From the NCBI RefSeq assembly GCF_020103755.1, contig NZ_JAHSQD010000030.1:1-33886 (forward strand): DNA of 33,886 bases, in the 5' to 3' direction. The stretch is from Streptomyces sp. LS1784 (lineage in GTDB: Bacteria > Actinomycetota > Actinomycetes > Streptomycetales > Streptomycetaceae). This document shows positions 20,970 through 30,268 of this stretch, one piece after another (position 1 is the stretch's first letter; every line of letters starts with the position of its first letter). The notes under the pieces were generated by a model. That model was not told the DNA's origin, made no database searches, and saw nothing but the letters and a program-made list of their open reading frames with translations. The translations under genes and the position numbers were made by a program.

Positions 20970-22352
20970 TACTGCAACCGCATCTGTCGTTACCGCTGGC
21001 GTTCGGCGTCGTTGGTATGACTGTGTGCTGATGAGCTGACGGTTGAGCAGGTCGAGTCGTGGTCCGAGGGGATAGTGGGCTTCCATGCCCGCTTCGCGCA
21101 CCGTTTCGGCAGGTCGGAGCCACGGGAGCGTGCTCTGGACTACCTGACCGGGCTGCTGGCGCCCCTGGAGCGGAAAAACGGCTGGACGCTGTCCGAACAG
21201 GTCGGCCAGTCACGCCCGGACGGCGTCCAGCGCCTGCTCAACCACTCCGAGTGGGACGCGGACGCGGTCCGCGACGACGTGCGCGACTTTGTGAGACCAT
21301 CGGCGCCAAGGACGGAATCCTGATCGGCGACGACACGGGGTTCCTGAAGAAGGGCACCCGCTCGGCCGGCGTCCAGCGCCAATACACCGGCACCGCCGGT
21401 CGGACGGAAAATTGCCAGATCGGCACGTTCCTGGCCTACACCTCGTCCAAAGGCCGCGCGCTGATCGACCGCGAGCTGTACCTCCCCAAGTCGTGGACCG
21501 ACGACCGTGCGCGGTGCCAGGCCGCCGGGATCGACGACGAGGTGCCGTTCGCGACCAAGAACGAACACCTGAAGTGGATGCTGCAGCGTGCGATCGACGC
21601 GGAAGTGCCGTTCGCGTGGGTCACCGCCGACGAGGCATACGGGCAGGTCAAGCACCTGCGGTTCTGGCTGGAGGAACGCCGCATCGCCCACGTGATGGCC
21701 ACCAAGGTCAACGACACGGTGATCACCGCCAATGGGACGAACACCCGCGTGGACGCCCTGATCAACTCGCTGCTCCGGCAGGCATGGAAGCGCCTGTCCG
21801 GTGGCCAGGGCGCGCACGGCGAGCGGATCTACGACTGGGCTCGTGTCGTGATCCGCCCGGTGTGGGAGAACGGTTTCGGGCACTGGGTCCTGGCTCGCCG
21901 ATCCGTCAGCGACCCCAGCGAGATCGCCTACTACGTCTGCTACGGCCCCGTCGGCACCCGTCTCAAAGACCTGGTCAAGGTGGCCGCCGCCCGGTGGGCG
22001 GTCGAGGAGTCGTTCCAGGTCGCGAAGAACGAGTGCGGCCTGGACCACTACCAGGTCCGGCTCTACCGGGCCTGGTACCGGCACATCACCCTGGCCATGG
22101 CCACCCTGGCCTATCTGACCGCCGTCCGGGCCCAAGAAGCCGCAAAAGGGGCACCAGCGACGACGAAAACGAGCTCATACCCCTGAGCGTCCCCGAGATC
22201 CGCCGCTTGATGGGCCACCTCATCGTCACACCCCGCCACCACACCAACGAGCACCATCTGCGCTGGTCACGCTTCCGCCGACGCAGCCAGGCCCGAGCCC
22301 GCCGCTCCCACTACAAACGCCGAGGCCACAACCCCCAGATGCGGTTGCAGTA
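20970..22352 (+). mobile_element. IS701-type insertion sequence (1383 bp)
   Basis: The element is bounded by inverted ends in which TACTGCAACCGCATCTG at 20970-20986 is matched exactly by the reverse complement at 22336-22352. TTAG at 20966-20969 and 22353-22356 is a 4-bp target duplication of the YTAR type known for the IS701 family. The element carries one DDE transposase read across three frames. It sits antisense in the 3' end of the HEPN-like gene. The sharp ends and duplication suggest a fairly recent insertion, although the transposase frame is already broken. Confidence 0.92.
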
Positions 22353-22356
22353 TTAG
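21021..22356 (+). pseudogene. IS701-family transposase, two frameshifts
   Basis: The protein reads GFHARFAHRFGRSEPRERALDYLTGLL...NGWTLSEQVGQ in one frame to about 21294, then continues after a one-base loss as IGAKDGILIGDDTGFLKKG (with the first catalytic Asp), the TADEAYG segment and RWAVEESFQVAKNECGLDHYQVR (with the catalytic Glu). Near 22150 it moves by -1 again to ENELIPLSVPEIRRLMGHLI and ends MRLQY at 22356. These are IS701 DDE-transposase features. No normal start codon is in frame at the N-terminus; GTG at 21075 is the first. The second shift lies at A AAA GGG, a possible slippery site, but the first has no such motif, so ordinary decay is more likely. The last stop codon lies in the target duplication. 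Confidence 0.85.
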
Positions 22357-23160
22357 GCCAGGGCGGTCACGGAACTGGAGCACGAGATCGCAGTATTGGT
22401 CACCTTTGAAGGGTGACCGTGACCGCACGTCGGGCACGTCGAGCAGGTACGAGCTACCGTCCGGCCCCAGGTCGAGGACCACCGTCAGCTCTGGGACCGG
22501 GACTAGCTTGACCGCGCCCGCAAGGCTTTCCTTGTGAATCCCTTTAAGCCGCGCGAGTTGTGCCCGCAGATCGCCGTCGGTGCGGGGGTCGATCTGCTGC
22601 TGATGGGCCGCTTCGACCAGCCGCAGCGCGAGGTGGACGAATGCCTCCTGCTCGTCGGCTGTCAGGGGCCTAAGCTTTCCACCATTGCTGTCGTGGCCGA
22701 CCAGCGAGTCCGAGCTGTCGACGTAGACCAGTTGGTGAACCAAGCTGTTGCGAAGCAGTGCTGTCCCGTCGTAGGTGAGTGCAGTGGCCTTCCATATGTC
22801 CGCCGGGAGGAACGCTGGGGTGCCCACTTGGGCTCGCGCGAGCGCCCGCTTCCTCTCGATGCTGAACCCCCGCCTCTGGTCCGGTGTCTCGCCGGCCAGC
22901 GTGACGGCTTCCTCGAGGAAGAGATCGGCGATCTTCCAGGCTGCGCCGAAGAGAAGGGGTCGGATACGGAGGAGGGCGACACAGCCGTCCGGGGTGGCCC
23001 CCATGACGTCGCCGGCCGTCACGAACGCGCGAACCGAACCGTCTGCCGGATCCAGTACTGCCCGCCGAACGCCTGAGCTGGTCGGCGGGATGATCGGCAT
23101 CGCCCGGAGCAGAGTGTCCCGCTCGAGGGCTACAGCCTGTTCGAAGTCGGACCATGTCAC
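22267..23160 (-). CDS. HEPN-like protein with IS-altered C-terminus
   Basis: The 297-residue frame starts with GTG at 23160 (GGTGA upstream). Residues 1-269 are native; the last 28 (from ILQPHLG) are encoded by the end of the inserted IS element and replace 27 native residues. I do not recognise the whole protein, but LLRNSLVHQLVYVD has Arg137-x4-His142, the Rx4H catalytic motif of HEPN RNases, set in a helical region (RKRALARA to VEAAHQQQ). A beta-rich C-terminal part (LTVVLDLGPDGSSYLLDVPDV) follows. HEPN proteins are RNases used in toxin-antitoxin and abortive-infection systems. It lies 64 bases behind the 384-residue gene in the same operon. Whether the altered tail abolishes activity is unknown. 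Confidence 0.65.
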   Translation of the reverse strand: MTWSDFEQAVALERDTLLRAMPIIPPTSSGVRRAVLDPADGSVRAFVTAGDVMGATPDGCVALLRIRPLLFGAAWKIADLFLEEAVTLAGETPDQRRGFSIERKRALARAQVGTPAFLPADIWKATALTYDGTALLRNSLVHQLVYVDSSDSLVGHDSNGGKLRPLTADEQEAFVHLALRLVEAAHQQQIDPRTDGDLRAQLARLKGIHKESLAGAVKLVPVPELTVVLDLGPDGSSYLLDVPDVRSRSPFKGDQYCDLVLQFRDRPGLILQPHLGVVASAFVVGAAGSGLAASAEA

Positions 23161-23224: not shown

Positions 23225-24379
23225 CTACCGGGCGGGTAGGCCGGCCACCAAAGGGCGAAGGGGCGCTGGGGTCAGGAGATCGGCACGGTGGCGGCCACCC
23301 TCGTCGGCCACGGCCAGGGCTGCTTCGGTCCCCTCCGCCACGAACAGCAGCGACAGTGCTGACGAACACTGTTGACTTGGCGTCGGGTTCGGCTCAGCCA
23401 ACCCCACCCGAATCAGGTCCCGGCTGAGCGAAAACAGCATGCCGTAGATCCACTTCTCGCTGGCCGGCCCGGGAAGGCCATCTGCGATCTCAGCCTCGAC
23501 GGCTGCGCACAAGTCCTCCGCCCACGTGGCGAGGGTGCCAGCCGCCTGCCAGACGGCACGCAGTCGCTCCAGCGGAGTGTCCCGGACGAGCGTATGGAGA
23601 TGGTGAAGGATGCTGCTCTCCGGCAACCCCGGCAACCGGTGTGCGGGTGCGTCGCGGAGGGCCTGGAGAGGATCGCCGTTATTGGTCTCCAGCAGGTAGG
23701 CGCCGGGGTTGAGATCACTGACTCCGGAGCGGCTTCGAACGACCCGGGCGATCGTCTCCGGCCCGATGCCGTCGGCTCCAAGCAGGATCCCGAGCACGGA
23801 GTGGAACGTCAGTCCGGCGTTGTCCAGCGGTTCAGCGCCGCCGGAGCCGTCCAGGGCGCCGATCGTGGGCCAGAACTCGGCGAGGGCCGGGAGCTCGCGC
23901 AACGCCTTGTCGATCTTGCGGATCCGTCGGCTCACCCCGACCGTACGGTGTTGATGCTCGAGAGCGATTCGGGACGCGCCGTCCCCCACCCAGTCATCCG
24001 GATCGGTCCCGGCTGGAAGCGGGCCGAGGTTCTTCCGCAGATCCTCGGCCATCGCGAGCACATGCCAGCCGAACGCGGCGCGTACAGAGTCCTCAGGGAC
24101 GCGCAGGCCCTCGGCGAAGGCGCCCAGGATGAGGTGGTCGCGACTCCCTCCCTGCTTCTGGTGGTTCCCCAACCACACCACCAGCTCGCCGATCTCGTCG
24201 TCGGCGGCTGAGGAACTGCCGCCGACCGGCCGTCCGGGCCAGGTGCGCTCGTTGGGCGGGAGCAGCGGGTCCGGCTTGCCGCGCCAGCGTTCCAACTGCC
24301 GGGCGGTGACCTCGACCCCTTGGGCCTTGGCGTACGCGATCAGACGGGCATCGGCGGGGCTGGGTGAGCTGCGAGCCAT
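23225..24379 (-). CDS. Uncharacterised 384-residue protein, partner of the HEPN-like gene
   Basis: I do not recognise this protein. The N-terminal 50 residues (ARLIAYAKAQGVEVTARQLERWRGKPDPLLPP) look like a winged or MerR-like helix-turn-helix seen in actinobacterial regulators. The remainder is mostly helical and acidic, with no membrane segment and no clear catalytic motif. The ATG at 24379 has no Shine-Dalgarno; a TACCGT about a dozen bases upstream could be a -10 box of a leaderless transcript. It is followed by the HEPN-like gene after 64 bases. An N-terminal DNA-binding domain ahead of a toxin-like gene would fit an antitoxin or regulator role, which is inference only. Confidence 0.7.
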   Translation of the reverse strand: MARSSPSPADARLIAYAKAQGVEVTARQLERWRGKPDPLLPPNERTWPGRPVGGSSSAADDEIGELVVWLGNHQKQGGSRDHLILGAFAEGLRVPEDSVRAAFGWHVLAMAEDLRKNLGPLPAGTDPDDWVGDGASRIALEHQHRTVGVSRRIRKIDKALRELPALAEFWPTIGALDGSGGAEPLDNAGLTFHSVLGILLGADGIGPETIARVVRSRSGVSDLNPGAYLLETNNGDPLQALRDAPAHRLPGLPESSILHHLHTLVRDTPLERLRAVWQAAGTLATWAEDLCAAVEAEIADGLPGPASEKWIYGMLFSLSRDLIRVGLAEPNPTPSQQCSSALSLLFVAEGTEAALAVADEGGRHRADLLTPAPLRPLVAGLPAR

Positions 24380-24885: not shown

Positions 24886-26661
24886 TCAGGCAGGGTAGAA
24901 GCCTCTCCTGCTCGCCCCGGAGGTATGGAACGGGTGAAGCGTCGCCTGGCCGCTGAGATCGTCTGGGGGGTCAACGTTCTCAACGATGATGACCTGGGCA
25001 CTCGGGTCGTCGTGTAGCGATCGATAGAAATTGGCGATTACGTCGAAAGGGATCGCGCCGATTCCCCCAAAGGCGAGCGGGGAGTCGAGCACGATGAAGC
25101 CCGGGTGCAGGCGGCTTCGGTTTGCCGCGAAACGGGCAAGCGCTACGGTGAAAGCTGCGTGGGCGATTGAGCGCATCCCACGCCCGAGCATATTTCGGGG
25201 AAGATTACCCACCGACATGTCGGCGGTCTTTTGGTTGTAGGAGACGCGAATATCTCCGGGAATTCTCCACCTCGCCAAAGTTGCATGCACGGCAGTTTCG
25301 AAGCCGGAAATATCGGCTTCGGGAATTCCATCCGGCCGGGACTTCTTTGCGCTCTCAAGGCGTTGGATCTGAACATGCAAGGCCAGGTCGGCCTGAATCT
25401 GAGTTTTAGACGTGAGCAGTTCATTGATGCCGTCGCTTAGCGGCGCGAGTAGTCCATTGAGGCGGGCTACTTCAATTCTAATGTCATCGGTCTCTATGGC
25501 GAGCTCTGCATACTCGCTTTCCAAGGTGCGCAGCTGTTCGGCAAGGTCCGCCATCGTGGCGCTCAGATCATCGCGAAGTCCAGCCGTCTTGCGAATTTCC
25601 TCCCCAGCGGCAACCTGAAGTTGCTGCGCGTCACCCATCTGATGCCCAGGGTTCTGATGCCCGGGTGCCGCCCCGCAGAATACACAAGGGCCGTTTTGGG
25701 AGAAGTAGCCCAAAAGGTTTCCCGCCTCAGCAACCATTTGAAGGCGTCCAAGATCGGACTCATACTGCTGATTGAGGAGGTCGAAGCGGCCAAGAAGGGC
25801 CTCAAGCTCACCTGCGCGCTCACGGTTCCCGGCGACCCGCGAGGATACGAACCGCTCGCGTTCAACGAGCGCAAAGCGGCGTGCAACCAGCTCCTCATTG
25901 GTTGCTGCCGCAGCGGCCAGGGATTCCTCGACCTGGGTAAGCTGATTCTGGAGGTCGAATTCGCTGGCAGGGATCGCCAGCCTGCTCTGGGCATCGGCGA
26001 TGAGATCGTCGAGAAGATCCGCCCTTCCCAACCCGATATTCTTTTCTACGTCGCCGGGGCCGACAAAACTCTCTGGCTCGTCTTCCCCGGTCAGGAGGAG
26101 CTTGAAAACAGACCTCTCTGCCACCGCGTTCGCCGTCTGCCCGGAGGCTAGGACCGGAGAGCGCGTGTCGGAAATCCTCTCGCTGTTGATCACGCACAGG
26201 CGGGCCAAATCCCTGAAACCGAGGGTGCGGAACTGCCCGTGTCTGGCGCTCTTCAAAAGGTTCCGACCATCCGCCCCAAGGATCTTCAGTAGATAGCGGG
26301 ACAGGTTGTTGTCCGCTTGCGGGCTGTGTAGGACGCGCAGCTGCCGATTTGGGGCAGGAAAGGGAAAGTCCCGAATGTCCGCCTCGTATACCTCGACCAT
26401 ATTACTGCCCACCGCCCGGGCGAGGGTTAGAACATCGCCAGCAGCAGTGCGCAGTCCCAAAAGGAGATGAGTGTATCCATGTGACTCGGGGATTGATTTA
26501 ATCCGAGGCCCGCCGAGCGTGTAGTCGATGGCCTCAACAATATACGACTTTCCAGTTTCCGACGCCCCATGGATAACCGTTAGGCGGGGTCCGAACTCTA
26601 CGCTCGCTGGCGGCCTACCCGGACCTACCGAGGTGAGATGCACCAGGGTTAGGGCGCTCAC
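24886..26661 (-). CDS. Second ABC-3C-type ATPase paralogue
   Basis: The start is GTG at 26661 with GGAGGG six to seven bases upstream; it aligns with the ATG of the first ATPase. The 591-residue protein has Walker A GASETGKS at 32-39, a long coiled-coil middle with a CxxC...H...H motif (Cys326, Cys329, His335, His340), the signature-like region GRGMRSIAHAAF near 493-504 and Walker B IVLDSP with Asp526. The whole length aligns with the 609-residue paralogue upstream, clearly over half identical. Unlike it, the segment after Walker B has lost the acidic YREPDED stretch and reads AFGGIGAIPFD. The base composition is visibly more AT-rich than its neighbours. It probably pairs with or regulates the first ATPase. 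Confidence 0.85.
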   Translation of the reverse strand: MSALTLVHLTSVGPGRPPASVEFGPRLTVIHGASETGKSYIVEAIDYTLGGPRIKSIPESHGYTHLLLGLRTAAGDVLTLARAVGSNMVEVYEADIRDFPFPAPNRQLRVLHSPQADNNLSRYLLKILGADGRNLLKSARHGQFRTLGFRDLARLCVINSERISDTRSPVLASGQTANAVAERSVFKLLLTGEDEPESFVGPGDVEKNIGLGRADLLDDLIADAQSRLAIPASEFDLQNQLTQVEESLAAAAATNEELVARRFALVERERFVSSRVAGNRERAGELEALLGRFDLLNQQYESDLGRLQMVAEAGNLLGYFSQNGPCVFCGAAPGHQNPGHQMGDAQQLQVAAGEEIRKTAGLRDDLSATMADLAEQLRTLESEYAELAIETDDIRIEVARLNGLLAPLSDGINELLTSKTQIQADLALHVQIQRLESAKKSRPDGIPEADISGFETAVHATLARWRIPGDIRVSYNQKTADMSVGNLPRNMLGRGMRSIAHAAFTVALARFAANRSRLHPGFIVLDSPLAFGGIGAIPFDVIANFYRSLHDDPSAQVIIVENVDPPDDLSGQATLHPFHTSGASRRGFYPA

Positions 26662-26694
26662 TGCTCTTTTCCCTCCTGTGACTACCGAGTTCAT

Positions 26695-26717
26695 CCGGGC
26701 CACAGTGTGTGGCCCGG
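26695..26717 (-). promoter_or_regulatory. Perfect hairpin in the gap between the two ATPase genes
   Basis: CCGGGCCACA at 26695-26704 and TGTGGCCCGG at 26708-26717 pair over 10 bases with a 3-base loop. The hairpin lies in the 138-base gap and ends about 33 bases before the start of the second ATPase. Without a T-run it could act as a weak terminator, an RNA-stability element or an attenuator that sets the ratio of the two ATPases. Confidence 0.6.
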
Positions 26718-26799: not shown

Positions 26800-28629
26800 T
26801 CAGCCCGTTGGAGCCGCAGGGTAGAACCCCACTCGCTCCGCCCCGGCAGTCCTGAACGGGTGCAGCGTCGCCTGCTCACCCAGGTCCTGGGGTGGGTTGA
26901 CGTTCTCGGCCACGATGATCTGTACGTTGAGTTCGTCGTAGAGTGACTGGAAGAAGTGGCCGACTACGTTGCGGGGCATCACGAAGTCCTCATCGGGCTC
27001 ACGGTAGGCGAGCAGCGGAGAGTCCAGTACGACGAAGCCCGGGTGGGGCAGTTCGTGCTCCGCCGTGTAGCGCGCGAGGGCCATTGTGAATGCCGCGTGG
27101 ATGACCGAGCGCATGCCTCTGCCGCGGCTGCCGCGAGGGCTGCCGTCCACCGAGATCTCGGCCGTCTTCTGGTCGTAGCTGACACGATTGGCACCAGGGA
27201 GCTGCCAAGAGGCCAGGATCTCGTGCATCGTGCGCTCGAAGTCGGCGACATCCGATGCGGGAATTCCCTCTGGGCGGGCGGTTTCGGGAGTGGCCGGCGT
27301 GCTCGACAGGCTGGCCCTCATCTCTTCGAGCTGTTGAACCTGGGCGTGGATGGAGAGATCGGCTTGCACCTTGCTTCGGGTCGACAGGATGGCCTTGGTG
27401 TCCTCGTTCAGTGGTGCGAGGCGCTGGTCGAGGATGGCGAGCTCGCGGGTGAGCGCGCTGCTGCCGGCAATCAGTGAGGCGTGGTCTCCCTCCAACAACC
27501 TCAGCTGCTCTTCGAGGTCATCCATAGTGGTGAGTAGGTCGGCATGGAGTTCGGTCGTCTTGCGGATCTCAGCGGCAACGGCGACCTGGAGCTGCTCCGT
27601 CTCGGCCGTCTGGTGGTCGGGCTGCTGGTGCTCGGGGGCTGCTCCGCAGAAGATGCATGGGCCTTCCCGGAAGAAGTAGCCGAGAAGGCTGCCAGCTTCG
27701 GCGACCATCCGCAGGCGATCGAGGTCGGACTCGTACTGCTGGCGCAGGAGTCCGAAGCGGCCGATGAGTGTGCGGAGTTCCCCAATACGTTCGCGGTTCA
27801 CGGTGGTCCGCGTCTGCAGTAGCCGCTCCCGCTCGACCAGCGCGGAACGATCGGTGACCAGGTCTCTGGCGGCTGCCGATGCGTTGACCAAGCTCTCTTC
27901 CAGCCTCCGCAGCTGGTCAAGCAGCTCGGATTCGCTGCTTGCGATCTCCAGGCGGCTCTGCGCCTGGGTGATGAGCTGGTCGAGAAGTTCGATCTTTCCT
28001 TTGCCTACCTTCTTCTCAACGTTGCTCGCGCCGGTTGGGCCCTCGGGCTCATCCTCGCCAGTCAGGAGGAGCTTGAAGACGGACTTGTCCTCCGTCTCCT
28101 TGATCGTCTGGCGGGAAGCGAGGACTGGAGACCGCCCGTCTGCCATCGGTGTATCGGTGATGACGCAGAGGTGGGCAAGGTCCCGGAAGCTGAGTGTGCG
28201 CAGTACGCGGCGAGCGTTCTTCAGGACCCGCCGGCCGTCGACCCCGACGATCTTCAGCAGGTAGCGGGACAGGTTGTTCTCTGCCTTGGGGTCATGCTTG
28301 AGATTGAGCGTTCGGTTCGGTGCCACGGCTGGAAGGCTCCGCAGGTCGTCCTCGAAAACGTCGACCTTGGTGCCTCCCATTTCCCGGCACAGGGTGACGA
28401 TCTGACCGTCGGCGGTATGGAGGCCGAGCAGCATGTGGGTGTAGCCATCGGCCTGGCTGATTGTCTTTAGCTTGGTGGCGCCCAGCATGTAGTCGATGGC
28501 TTCGACGATGTAGGACTTGCCGGTCTCGGATGCCCCGTAGATGACAGTCAGGTGGGGGCCGAACTCGACGCTCGCCGGCGGCTTGTCCGGGCCTACCGAG
28601 GTGAGGTGCATCAGGGCCAGGGCGCTCAT
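26800..28629 (-). CDS. ABC-3C system ATPase (RecF/SMC-like)
   Basis: The 609-residue protein starts at ATG 28629, within an ATGA overlap with the middle-component gene. Walker A GASETGKS is at 32-39. A long heptad-rich middle contains a zinc-hook-like CIFC (Cys325, Cys328) followed by His334 and His339 near its centre. The signature-like GSRGRGMRSVIHAAF is near 500-514, Walker B GFVVLDSPLL has Asp536, and an acidic YREPDED stretch (542-548) follows. This is the structure of the Rad50/RecF-like ABC ATPases in the ABC-three-component conflict systems, where the ATPase is thought to sense invading nucleic acid and licence the effector. The neighbours confirm the assignment. Confidence 0.9.
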   Translation of the reverse strand: MSALALMHLTSVGPDKPPASVEFGPHLTVIYGASETGKSYIVEAIDYMLGATKLKTISQADGYTHMLLGLHTADGQIVTLCREMGGTKVDVFEDDLRSLPAVAPNRTLNLKHDPKAENNLSRYLLKIVGVDGRRVLKNARRVLRTLSFRDLAHLCVITDTPMADGRSPVLASRQTIKETEDKSVFKLLLTGEDEPEGPTGASNVEKKVGKGKIELLDQLITQAQSRLEIASSESELLDQLRRLEESLVNASAAARDLVTDRSALVERERLLQTRTTVNRERIGELRTLIGRFGLLRQQYESDLDRLRMVAEAGSLLGYFFREGPCIFCGAAPEHQQPDHQTAETEQLQVAVAAEIRKTTELHADLLTTMDDLEEQLRLLEGDHASLIAGSSALTRELAILDQRLAPLNEDTKAILSTRSKVQADLSIHAQVQQLEEMRASLSSTPATPETARPEGIPASDVADFERTMHEILASWQLPGANRVSYDQKTAEISVDGSPRGSRGRGMRSVIHAAFTMALARYTAEHELPHPGFVVLDSPLLAYREPDEDFVMPRNVVGHFFQSLYDELNVQIIVAENVNPPQDLGEQATLHPFRTAGAERVGFYPAAPTG

Positions 28630-29108
28630 TGGCCTTCGTCCCTTCTGTGGCCGGTGGCTTCGGCGCGCAGTTGGTCGGTCCAACGCCGGGTGATCTGCTT
28701 CATGTCTTCTCGAACATCTACGCCGTCGTGGAGATAGTGCTCAGCCAGCCATGCGGCGCGGTCCTTGAGCGCGCCGACGTAGTCGGCCTTGAGCGTCTCC
28801 AGGAAGCTGGCGGCTTCCTCCGTCGCGCCATAGAGAAAGCCGCCCTCGTCGGTGGTCATGTCCGCCAGGCCAGCCCGCAGGAGTACAACCAGTCCCTGCT
28901 CCACGAGAGCGCGGCGCAGGCCAAGCTCACCGGGCCCGGCGGGCAGGTCCGGTTGGAGACTGTCCGGGCCTCCGTCGAAGTCTCCGCTGTGCAGCAGGGC
29001 ATGGTCGAGGTAGACGAGTTCGGCGACGTCCAGGCGGTCTGGGAAGGCTTCGGTCAGGAGGACGAGTGCTCGGATGCCTACTTCTACGGGTCCGTTGAGG
29101 GGGGTCAT
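28626..29108 (-). CDS. ABC-3C system middle component
   Basis: The 160-residue protein matches the small middle component of ABC-three-component systems: PVEVGIRALVLLTEAFPDRLDVAELVYLDHALLHSGDFDGG near the start, then PDSLQPDLPAGPGELGLRRALVEQGLVVLLRAGLADM and FLYGATEEAASFLETLKADYV, a typical winged-helix-like adaptor. The ATG at 29108 follows AGGAGG at seven bases and lies two bases after the effector stop; a GTG overlapping that stop is an alternative start. Its stop overlaps the ATPase start. The component is thought to bridge effector and ATPase. I would place it in the middle-component-2 group, with moderate certainty about the subgroup. Confidence 0.88.
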   Translation of the reverse strand: MTPLNGPVEVGIRALVLLTEAFPDRLDVAELVYLDHALLHSGDFDGGPDSLQPDLPAGPGELGLRRALVEQGLVVLLRAGLADMTTDEGGFLYGATEEAASFLETLKADYVGALKDRAAWLAEHYLHDGVDVREDMKQITRRWTDQLRAEATGHRRDEGQ

Positions 29109-29110
29109 CG

Positions 29111-30268
29111 TCACTCCTCCTCTCGCTTGCACCAGGTCAGGCGGTGGTCATTGGCGAGGTGGTGGCACAGGCCCTTTTTGTCGAGGCCAGTCACGACCGC
29201 AGCCAGGATGTTCGCTGGGTTGGGGTGGTGGCTCGATGCAGCAATTAGCACTTGACGCAGCCGCTCGTATCCGTCGTTGTACGGGCCGTCTGCCACGTCG
29301 TAGACAGCATGGTAGAGATCGTTTTCGATCGCCCTGTAGGTGGCAGGTGGCACGCTCTCGCGGGCAAACACGCGCAGCGCCTCGGCACTGTAGAAGGCTT
29401 CGCGCTGGAGGATCAGGTGTTCCTTGGTCTTCTGGTGGTCCCGGGCCTCCTGCAGTGTCTGCAGAGTCAGGCCGTGCTTCTCGTTGTAGACATCGAGAAG
29501 CTTTCGGACGAAGACCGCCTCGTTGGCGGCTTGTTCAGCCGGCGGTTGCTCCACATCGGGGCGGGCCGGAAGCTGCTGTGGAAAGCGTCGAACGTGGTCT
29601 GGGGTCTTGCTGTGCATCTCCAGGATCCACTTCATCGCCGCTGGCTGGAACATGGAGAACTCTGTGTCTTGAGCCAGTTCCTCGACGGCAGCCCGTTCCT
29701 CCGCGCTCAGGTCGGTTCCGAGGGTTGATCGTTCCTTGTTCCACTCCTCGAAGAACTTCGCCTTCATGGCCTTCGGCTTGAGGAACAGACGCTCCAGAGT
29801 GATCCCGATCTTCGGCGCCACAAAGACGTACAGCGTGGGAAGCTCGTAGTCACCGCGGACCTTCGCCAGGAAGATCTTGACCATCTCCGGCCACGCGTCG
29901 GACGGCCTAAGCGCTGCGCTGTAGTGCTTGCACTGGTAGCAGTGCCACTCGCCCTCTGTACCCTCCAGCGTGAGGCAGGCGGCGATGTCCGCGCCCTTGT
30001 CTCCGGCTCCGCCCATCCGCTGAACCCGGACATAGGGGTACTCCAGGGCATGCACCCACTCGGCGGTGAAGTCCTCCCATTCGTCCTCTTTGCACCCGTA
30101 ACGGAGGAACTCCTCCGGCGTTGGTAGGCGTGCACCCTGCATCCGCGGAGCCAGGACAACCACGTCCGGTGACTTGCGCTCCGGGAACCCTTCGAAGATC
30201 GGAACAGGCGCGTCGCCCCCCGCTCCAGACGCCTCAGCCATGTCCCTCCACGTCAGGTAGTAGCGCAA
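29111..30268 (-). CDS. ABC-3C effector: restriction-endonuclease-like domain plus C-terminal ABC-3C domain
   Basis: The 385-residue protein has an N-terminal nuclease-like domain: acidic helix EDEWEDFTAEWVHAL (about 61-75), GDKGADI with Asp94 (90-95) and EWHCYQCKHY with Gln112 and Lys114, which together give the E...D...QxK pattern of PD-(D/E)xK endonucleases. The part from about 240 onwards is the helical domain that couples effectors to the ABC-3C partners. TTG at 30268 has GGAGAG six bases upstream and is preferred; an ATG at 30241 has its purine run too close. It is the first gene of a four-gene operon with a GATAGGACT element upstream resembling a -10 box. Nucleic-acid cleavage is likely; the target is unknown. 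Confidence 0.85.
   Translation of the reverse strand: MRYYLTWRDMAEASGAGGDAPVPIFEGFPERKSPDVVVLAPRMQGARLPTPEEFLRYGCKEDEWEDFTAEWVHALEYPYVRVQRMGGAGDKGADIAACLTLEGTEGEWHCYQCKHYSAALRPSDAWPEMVKIFLAKVRGDYELPTLYVFVAPKIGITLERLFLKPKAMKAKFFEEWNKERSTLGTDLSAEERAAVEELAQDTEFSMFQPAAMKWILEMHSKTPDHVRRFPQQLPARPDVEQPPAEQAANEAVFVRKLLDVYNEKHGLTLQTLQEARDHQKTKEHLILQREAFYSAEALRVFARESVPPATYRAIENDLYHAVYDVADGPYNDGYERLRQVLIAASSHHPNPANILAAVVTGLDKKGLCHHLANDHRLTWCKREEE

What the first reader, a model, noticed from the sequence alone, without database searches (positions are those of the whole stretch)
24886..26661. Second ATPase has lost the acidic segment after Walker B
ATPase 1 reads VLDSPLLAYREPDED at residues 534-548; ATPase 2 reads VLDSPLAFGGIGAIPFD. 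Walker A, the signature-like region and the CCHH hook are kept. Losing conserved acidic residues next to Walker B suggests slowed or absent hydrolysis, so it could be a pseudo-ATPase that sets the state of a heterodimer.
Basis: partly seen in the sequence, partly recalled or inferred. Interest (0 to 1): 0.62.

Follow-up and report, generated by a model that had tools for sequence, protein, structure and literature searches.

The report
Second Lamassu ATPase with trimmed D-loop
An anti-phage defence operon (Lamassu) in a Streptomyces-family bacterium carries a second copy of its DNA-sensing ATPase, and this intact copy has lost part of a loop that in related proteins touches the partner subunit, which may change how the two halves hold together rather than simply switching the enzyme off.

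Summary
Window 24886-26661 (-) encodes a second LmuB (B2, 591 aa) of a Lamassu/ABC-3C operon (lmuA-lmuC-lmuB1-lmuB2). Its post-Walker-B loop reads DSPLAFGGIGAIPFD, against DSPLLAYREPDEDF in B1. Of 75 LmuB proteins compared, B2's loop is the shortest and least acidic, and B2 alone lacks Y/F six residues after the Walker B Asp. The cited Glu is E or D in only 32 of 73 relatives, and the canonical catalytic Glu is Ser or Thr in 73 of 73 (Gln in the solved LmuBs seen). What is lost sits at the D-loop position, which in Rad50 contacts the partner's Walker A; two Rad50 D-loop mutants hydrolyse faster and form less stable dimers. B2 does not look like a long-dead gene: its frame is open, its branch dN/dS is about 0.17, and its predicted LmuB fold is complete. 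It is probably not a recent copy of B1. No other tandem LmuB pair was seen. Best reading: a maintained second LmuB with altered ATP-dependent head engagement, possibly pairing with B1. The heterodimer is untested, and a spare or newly failing gene remains a serious rival.

The parts
24886..26661 (-). lmuB2: second LmuB (Rad50/SMC-like ATPase), 591 aa, GTG start
   Evidence: PADLOC LmuB PDLC03863 E 1e-130; Pfam AAA_23; model aligns to solved LmuB 9uxh_F, Z 31.2, rmsd 35.6, 459 aligned
26545..26568 (-). B2 Walker A GASETGKS (residues 32-39), kept
   Evidence: alignment; column counts
25675..25686 (-). B2 hook CVFC (residues 326-329), kept
   Evidence: invariant Cys columns
25168..25185 (-). B2 signature-like GRGMRS (residues 493-498), kept
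   Evidence: both Gly invariant in 73 of 73
25084..25086 (-). B2 Walker B Asp codon (D526)
25039..25083 (-). B2 altered post-Walker-B (D-loop) segment SPLAFGGIGAIPFDV: one residue missing before the aromatic, and the acidic stretch shortened
26671..26676 (-). Shine-Dalgarno-like GGAGGG before the B2 GTG start
   Evidence: sequence shown
26695..26717 (.). perfect palindrome CCGGGCCACA-N3-TGTGGCCCGG in the B1-B2 spacer; possible terminator hairpin
   Evidence: 1 match in the window, 0 in 100 shuffles; hairpin in the fold of the spacer, z -2.26, 6 of 200 shuffles fold as well; one place in the genome at up to 2 mismatches, but the reversed control pattern also matched once per strand
26800..28629 (-). 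lmuB1: first LmuB, 609 aa
   Evidence: PADLOC PDLC03863 E 1.7e-156; model aligns to 9uxh_F, Z 31.5, rmsd 29.1, 532 aligned
26965..27021 (-). B1 post-Walker-B segment SPLLAYREPDEDFVMPRNV (reference form)
28626..29132 (-). lmuC (ABC-3C middle component 2)
   Evidence: Pfam MC2 PF20288 E 1.5e-36; PADLOC LmuC
29111..30268 (-). lmuA effector with CTD6 and a weak Mrr-type nuclease match (start codon not verified)
   Evidence: Pfam CTD6 PF20282 E 8.3e-34, Mrr_cat 17.0 bits below its cut-off of 21; PADLOC LmuA

Best explanation
B2 is a second, selection-maintained LmuB subunit of a Lamassu (ABC-3C) defence operon. Shown: it keeps Walker A, signature, hook and a complete predicted head fold, but its post-Walker-B loop has lost one residue before the aromatic and most of the following acidic stretch, a state found in none of the 73 near relatives counted. 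Inferred: this loop is the D-loop, which in Rad50-type dimers reaches across to the partner's Walker A, so the change alters how ATP-bound heads engage and signal across the dimer (a weaker or differently regulated closed state) rather than removing a catalytic acid, which the counted relatives lack anyway. Inferred and less certain: B2 acts beside B1, either as the odd half of a B1-B2 dimer or as an alternative LmuB on the same LmuA-LmuC.
For: LmuB identity by PADLOC and fold (for B1; 72 for B2). Loop outlier: shortest and least acidic of 75, the only one without Y/F at +6. The same aromatic is at +6 in the solved LmuB chains, LDQPSQVYFP and YDQPSQVYFP. The block YREPDED is low confidence in the B1 monomer model (model residues 541-547 under pLDDT 50), as expected of a segment that orders only against a partner (inference). 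Purifying selection: B2 branch dN 0.19, dS 1.05-1.18, ratio about 0.16-0.18; no stop in 591 codons, where 60 of 60 neutral simulations to a similar divergence had 1-12 stops. Complete predicted fold, mean pLDDT 87.9. Rad50 precedent for D-loop to trans Walker A contact and dimer stability (PMC7049730, abstract and passages).
Against: The D-loop assignment rests on motif position and an unresolved loop; no ATP-bound LmuB coordinates were compared residue by residue. B2 could place its F in the aromatic slot with one residue less. B2 has more losses at class-conserved columns than most: 5 of 100 at the 98% level (2nd of 75; B1 1), 13 of 163 at 90% (5th; B1 2), 24 of 214 at 80% (12th), which would also fit early decay. 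In the N-terminal and middle thirds B2 is more diverged from L032 than B1 is (pN 0.190 and 0.263 against 0.140 and 0.178). B2 lies behind a 138-base spacer with a hairpin, so co-expression with B1 is unsure. dS is near saturation and B2's GC3 differs (0.66 against 0.81), so its dN/dS may be underestimated. No other tandem pair supports a conserved two-LmuB design.
Confidence: 0.45

Rival explanations
1. B2 is a leftover of a second Lamassu operon that is newly released from constraint: it was functional until recently, and the loop deletion is one of its first lesions.
For: Longest end branch of its four-row clade (0.54 against 0.24 for B1 and 0.05-0.08 for L032 and L017); lower GC3 throughout; second highest count of lost 98%-conserved columns; hairpin spacer; the two ORFs directly downstream show no LmuA or LmuC match.
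Against: Open frame; branch dN/dS about 0.17; C-terminal third no more diverged from L032 than B1's is (pN 0.187 against 0.201); at exact columns of 95% or more it loses 1 of 57, like B1.
Confidence: 0.3
2. One reading: B2 is a pseudo-ATPase without hydrolysis because acidic residues beside Walker B are gone, and it sets the state of a B1-B2 heterodimer.
For: The loop is really different and less acidic; binding motifs are kept.
Against: The acid is variable in the relatives (32 of 73 E or D); none of the 73, nor B1, has the canonical catalytic Glu; two D-loop changes in Rad50 raise hydrolysis (PMC7049730, abstract).
Confidence: 0.1
3. B2 is an independent LmuB that forms its own homodimer with a naturally short loop and widens target range, like other LmuB subfamilies whose loop also lacks the YRxP block.
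For: Distant LmuBs have DSPRKAFG (L125), DSPRKNIG (L126), DSPRTSLG (L133) and DSPQKNLG (L134) after Walker B, so an aromatic or aliphatic residue followed by Gly occurs without the YRxP motif.
Against: B2 belongs by sequence to the YRxP subfamily and is one residue shorter before the aromatic than those loops.
Confidence: 0.15

Closest known systems
Lamassu / ABC-3C systems (LmuA-LmuC-LmuB; DdmABC)
   Same: Gene order lmuA-lmuC-lmuB, MC2 and CTD6 domains, LmuB fold and hook
   Different: Two adjacent LmuB genes, the second with a shortened loop; no other pair was seen in the loci and genomes searched
Salmonella enterica and type II Lamassu LmuB structures (9hqu, 9hqx, 9uxh, 9nyg)
   Same: Same fold over nearly the full length; Y at +6 after the Walker B Asp; no Glu at +1
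   Different: Distant (12-17% identity in the structural alignments); one LmuB sequence per complex by the chain counts, and Gln at +1 where this subfamily has Ser/Thr
Rad50 (Mre11-Rad50)
   Same: ABC head with coiled coil and a CxxC-type hook; D-loop position after Walker B
   Different: Rad50 has the catalytic Glu (recalled) and an Asp in the D-loop (PMC7049730), and no LmuA/LmuC partners

Membership tests
Lamassu (ABC-3C) | LmuB: SMC/Rad50-like ATPase matching LmuB models | tested here: met
   B2 and B1 hit PDLC03863 at E 1e-130 and 1.7e-156
Lamassu (ABC-3C) | Middle component / LmuC next to LmuB | tested here: met
   MC2 PF20288 E 1.5e-36, LmuC PDLC03871
Lamassu (ABC-3C) | LmuA effector with an ABC-3C C-terminal domain | tested here: met
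   CTD6 PF20282 E 8.3e-34, LmuA PDLC03852
Lamassu (ABC-3C) | LmuB fold of solved Lamassu complexes | tested here: met
   9uxh_F Z 31.5 (B1: rmsd 29.1, 532 aligned) and Z 31.2 (B2: rmsd 35.6, 459 aligned)
Lamassu (ABC-3C) | Defence against phage or plasmid | not testable with these tools
   needs an experiment
Pseudo-ATPase (ATP-binding ABC head without catalysis) | Loss of a catalytic residue that active relatives keep | tested here: not met
   The Glu position is Ser/Thr in 73 of 73 relatives and Ser in B1 too; the cited acid is E or D in 32 of 73
Pseudo-ATPase (ATP-binding ABC head without catalysis) | No ATP hydrolysis | not testable with these tools
   needs an assay
Heterodimeric SMC-like pair | Recurrent co-occurrence of two distinct heads in one operon | tested here: not met
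   No second LmuB in 80 loci within the DNA held (71 with at least 2 kb on both sides), nor an adjacent pair in the other genomes with matches (G408 has three matches on three separate contigs, so its arrangement is open)

The most novel reading that the evidence does not exclude
A Lamassu sensor built as an LmuB1-LmuB2 heterodimer, in which only one protomer carries the family's D-loop, so that one of the two ATP sites is engaged differently and the asymmetry sets the threshold for releasing the effector.
Probability: 0.18. Interest if true: 0.6.

Novelty: new variant of a known kind. Interest (0 to 1): 0.33.

Why it matters
If B2 works, it is a natural D-loop variant inside an immune sensor family that lacks the canonical catalytic Glu, and it would let one ask what ATP does in Lamassu: whether head engagement rather than hydrolysis controls effector release. 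If it is a failing spare, the case is an ordinary remnant of defence-gene turnover.

Tried and rejected
Rejected: a compensated frameshift as the source of the odd loop. Rejected: B2 as a long-dead pseudogene. Weakly disfavoured: recent in-place duplication of B1. B2 groups with L017 and L032 (98/94, 97/94), and a B1+B2 clade has p-AU 0.034 (the group was named after seeing the first tree). With B2 on a long branch this is not decisive, and in nucleotides the stretch with B1, lmuC and lmuA is nearer to L017 than B2 is (76% against 67%). Led nowhere: viral-contig scan for B2 (1 candidate stretch, none confirmed); NCBIfam gave the LmuBs only weak SMC/Rad50-type matches far below the curated cut-offs; the sigma-70 promoter scan gave nothing above chance. 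Not searched: Rfam, PHROGs, the phages and E. coli genomes collections, metagenomes. Of 141 plasmid records with a match, only H1, H2 and H29 were opened. No paper on a two-LmuB Lamassu appeared in the listings of searches (one search showed 15 of 2,081), and no structural paper on Lamassu appeared in them either, so absence in print is not shown.

Rows dropped before the counts: of 103 extracted rows, repeats of the same locus and identical sequences, fragments (L009/L020/L029, L010), the broken L092 and the distant L011 (DSPRLALN, which lacks Y/F at +6) were left out, giving 84; 9 near-duplicates at 95% identity or more were then left out, giving 75 including B1 and B2 (65 of them from the collection scan). 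Bias: the scan used patterns holding LDSP or the Walker A box, so Ser at +1 is over-sampled; the 6 unnamed-genome and 2 plasmid rows and the solved chains were not picked that way and also lack Glu there. In one search three rows (L141, L151, L134) matched the text pattern outside Walker B and were not read, 16 of 27 loci gave no pattern and L121 matched outside Walker B.

Full report
What is there. On the minus strand, lmuA (29111-30268), lmuC (28626-29132), lmuB1 (26800-28629) and lmuB2 (24886-26661) form a Lamassu/ABC-3C operon: Pfam CTD6 and MC2, PADLOC LmuA, LmuC and LmuB twice. B1 and B2 share 55-58% identity. The first three genes overlap end to start. B2 follows after 138 bases that hold a perfect palindrome (0 in 100 shuffles of the window; but a reversed control pattern also matches once per strand in the whole genome at up to 2 mismatches), which folds as a hairpin (spacer z -2.26). 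B2 has its own GGAGGG before a GTG start. The window is contig C519 of a 9.56 Mb genome. Its host is of the Streptomyces family and probably of the Kitasatospora group: a genome called same genus has a contig of 465,598 bases (G043), the length of a Kitasatospora sp. CB01950 contig carrying the matching locus (L086; lineage), though two other same-genus genomes match records titled Streptomyces sp. (G017 and L088, G032 and L050). The nearest LmuB relatives in the named collections are Streptomyces (best rows).

The observation. Walker B and what follows reads VLDSPLLAYREPDEDF in B1 and VLDSPLAFGGIGAIPF in B2, in frame. I collected LmuB relatives from a collection of 84,980 species genomes (404 confirmed, best 80 kept), from whole-genome searches and two plasmid loci, and reduced them to 73 representatives plus B1 and B2. 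B2 lacks this block: its loop has 16 residues and 1 acid, B1's 20 and 4, the others 21-30 residues and 2-9 acids. So the change is real and unique in this sample, but the conserved thing that was lost is the [TA][YF]RxP block and not an acid. Near relatives from later searches also keep Y/F at +6 wherever the segment was read, with some variation after it (YSAP in L116, YRDA in L118, YRGA in L154). Distant LmuBs, including the genome's own other LmuB at G000:C2 (DSPQKNLG), L125, L126 and L133 and L011, have a different loop with Gly or Asn at +7, so the YRxP block is a feature of this subfamily and not of all LmuBs.

What the lost block is. In ABC ATPases the residues 6-7 after the Walker B Asp are the D-loop (recalled). 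In Pyrococcus Rad50 the paper names L828 and D829 and describes the contact of D829 with the partner's Walker A (PMC7049730, passages); that the Walker B Asp is six residues before L828 is recalled. Y at +6 also stands in the solved LmuB chains. Hence B2 has a shortened D-loop, with F perhaps standing in for Y one place early. The abstract of that paper reports that two Rad50 D-loop mutants gain hydrolysis and have a less stable dimer, so 'slowed or absent hydrolysis' is not the expected effect. The catalytic Glu itself is absent from all 73 relatives, B1, B2 and the solved chains aligned, and a review already drew the inference of low or no hydrolysis for Vibrio Lamassu from a Glu-to-Gln change there (PMC10586767, passages).

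Is B2 alive? The frame is open over 591 codons. Pairwise Nei-Gojobori distances give the B2 branch dN about 0.19 and dS 1.05-1.18, ratio about 0.17, within the range of pairwise ratios among the LmuBs without B2 (0.145-0.323). The C-terminal third is no more diverged from L032 than B1's (pN 0.187 against 0.201), but the first two thirds are (0.190 and 0.263 against 0.140 and 0.178). All 60 neutral simulations to similar divergence had at least one stop, mean 5.75. Against this, B2 has the longest end branch of its clade (0.54), lower GC3 (0.66 against 0.81), and more losses at class-conserved columns than most: 5 of 100 at the 98% level (2nd of 75), 13 of 163 at 90% (5th), 24 of 214 at 80% (12th). 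At exact columns of 95% or more it loses 1 of 57, the same as B1. Predicted structures of both are complete LmuB folds (mean pLDDT 86.5 and 87.9, pTM 0.59 and 0.63), with solved Lamassu LmuBs at the top of the comparisons (large rmsd, probably because the coiled coils bend). The loop is very low confidence in B1 (YREPDED under pLDDT 50) and better ordered in B2 (block mean 72).

Where B2 came from. It groups with L017 and L032 rather than with B1 (98/94; p-AU 0.034 against a B1+B2 clade), which weakly favours an LmuB from a related operon over a recent copy of B1. B1 with lmuC and lmuA aligns as one block to L017 at 76% nucleotide identity, B2 alone at 67%.

Is the pair a recurrent design? Not in what was searched. 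None of the 80 genome-contig loci has a second LmuB in the DNA held (tblastn; profile: the one double hit, L092, is a single broken gene; 71 of 80 have at least 2 kb on both sides). In whole genomes, matches were found in 12 of 100 relatives, 7 of 70 genus members, 19 of 394 class members and 24 of 394 family members; the window genome is counted in each tally, the sets overlap, and the cut-offs differ (E 1e-3, 1e-40, 1e-30, 1e-50). Only the window genome shows an adjacent intact pair. Two hits in one genome in G024 and G549 lie near the two chromosome ends; those in G078 and G068 lie close together and cover different parts of the query, as pieces of one gene would; G408 has three matches on three separate contigs of a draft, so adjacency there cannot be judged. 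Only three candidates per genome were scored. A plasmid record with four places (H29) holds a single LmuB within 15 kb on either side of its best place.

Verdict. A true and unusual sequence change in a second LmuB that shows signs of having been maintained, read wrongly as loss of a catalytic acid. Most likely it modifies ATP-dependent engagement of the heads; heterodimerisation with B1 is untested.

Noticed in passing
window 26695-26717: Perfect 10-bp palindrome with a 3-base loop between lmuB1 and lmuB2, one place in the genome at up to 2 mismatches (a reversed control pattern also matches once per strand); terminator or leftover of a mobile end is unknown. The Lamassu review (PMC10586767, passages) mentions hairpin-forming palindromes as a possible Lamassu trigger.
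   Followed up: partly
G000:C2:4148-6073 (L134): The same genome holds another LmuB of a different subfamily (PDLC03862, E 4.4e-223) with loop DSPQKNLGHGG.
   Followed up: partly
L020:6693-7547 (G024): A 284-aa ORF begins with a WhiB-like stretch (recalled resemblance) and ends in a C-terminal LmuB piece 80% identical to B1 over residues 463-624 of the query, present near both ends of the chromosome contig: a remnant or fusion.
   Followed up: partly
window 22267-23160 and 23225-24379: Two minus-strand ORFs downstream of lmuB2 with no Pfam, NCBIfam or PADLOC match at E 0.1, lying before an IS701-type transposase (21059-22186).
   Followed up: no
L112:14587-16764: On a Sinorhizobium fredii plasmid one annotated 'middle component 2' gene spans the LmuB match, so LmuC and LmuB appear fused.
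   Followed up: no
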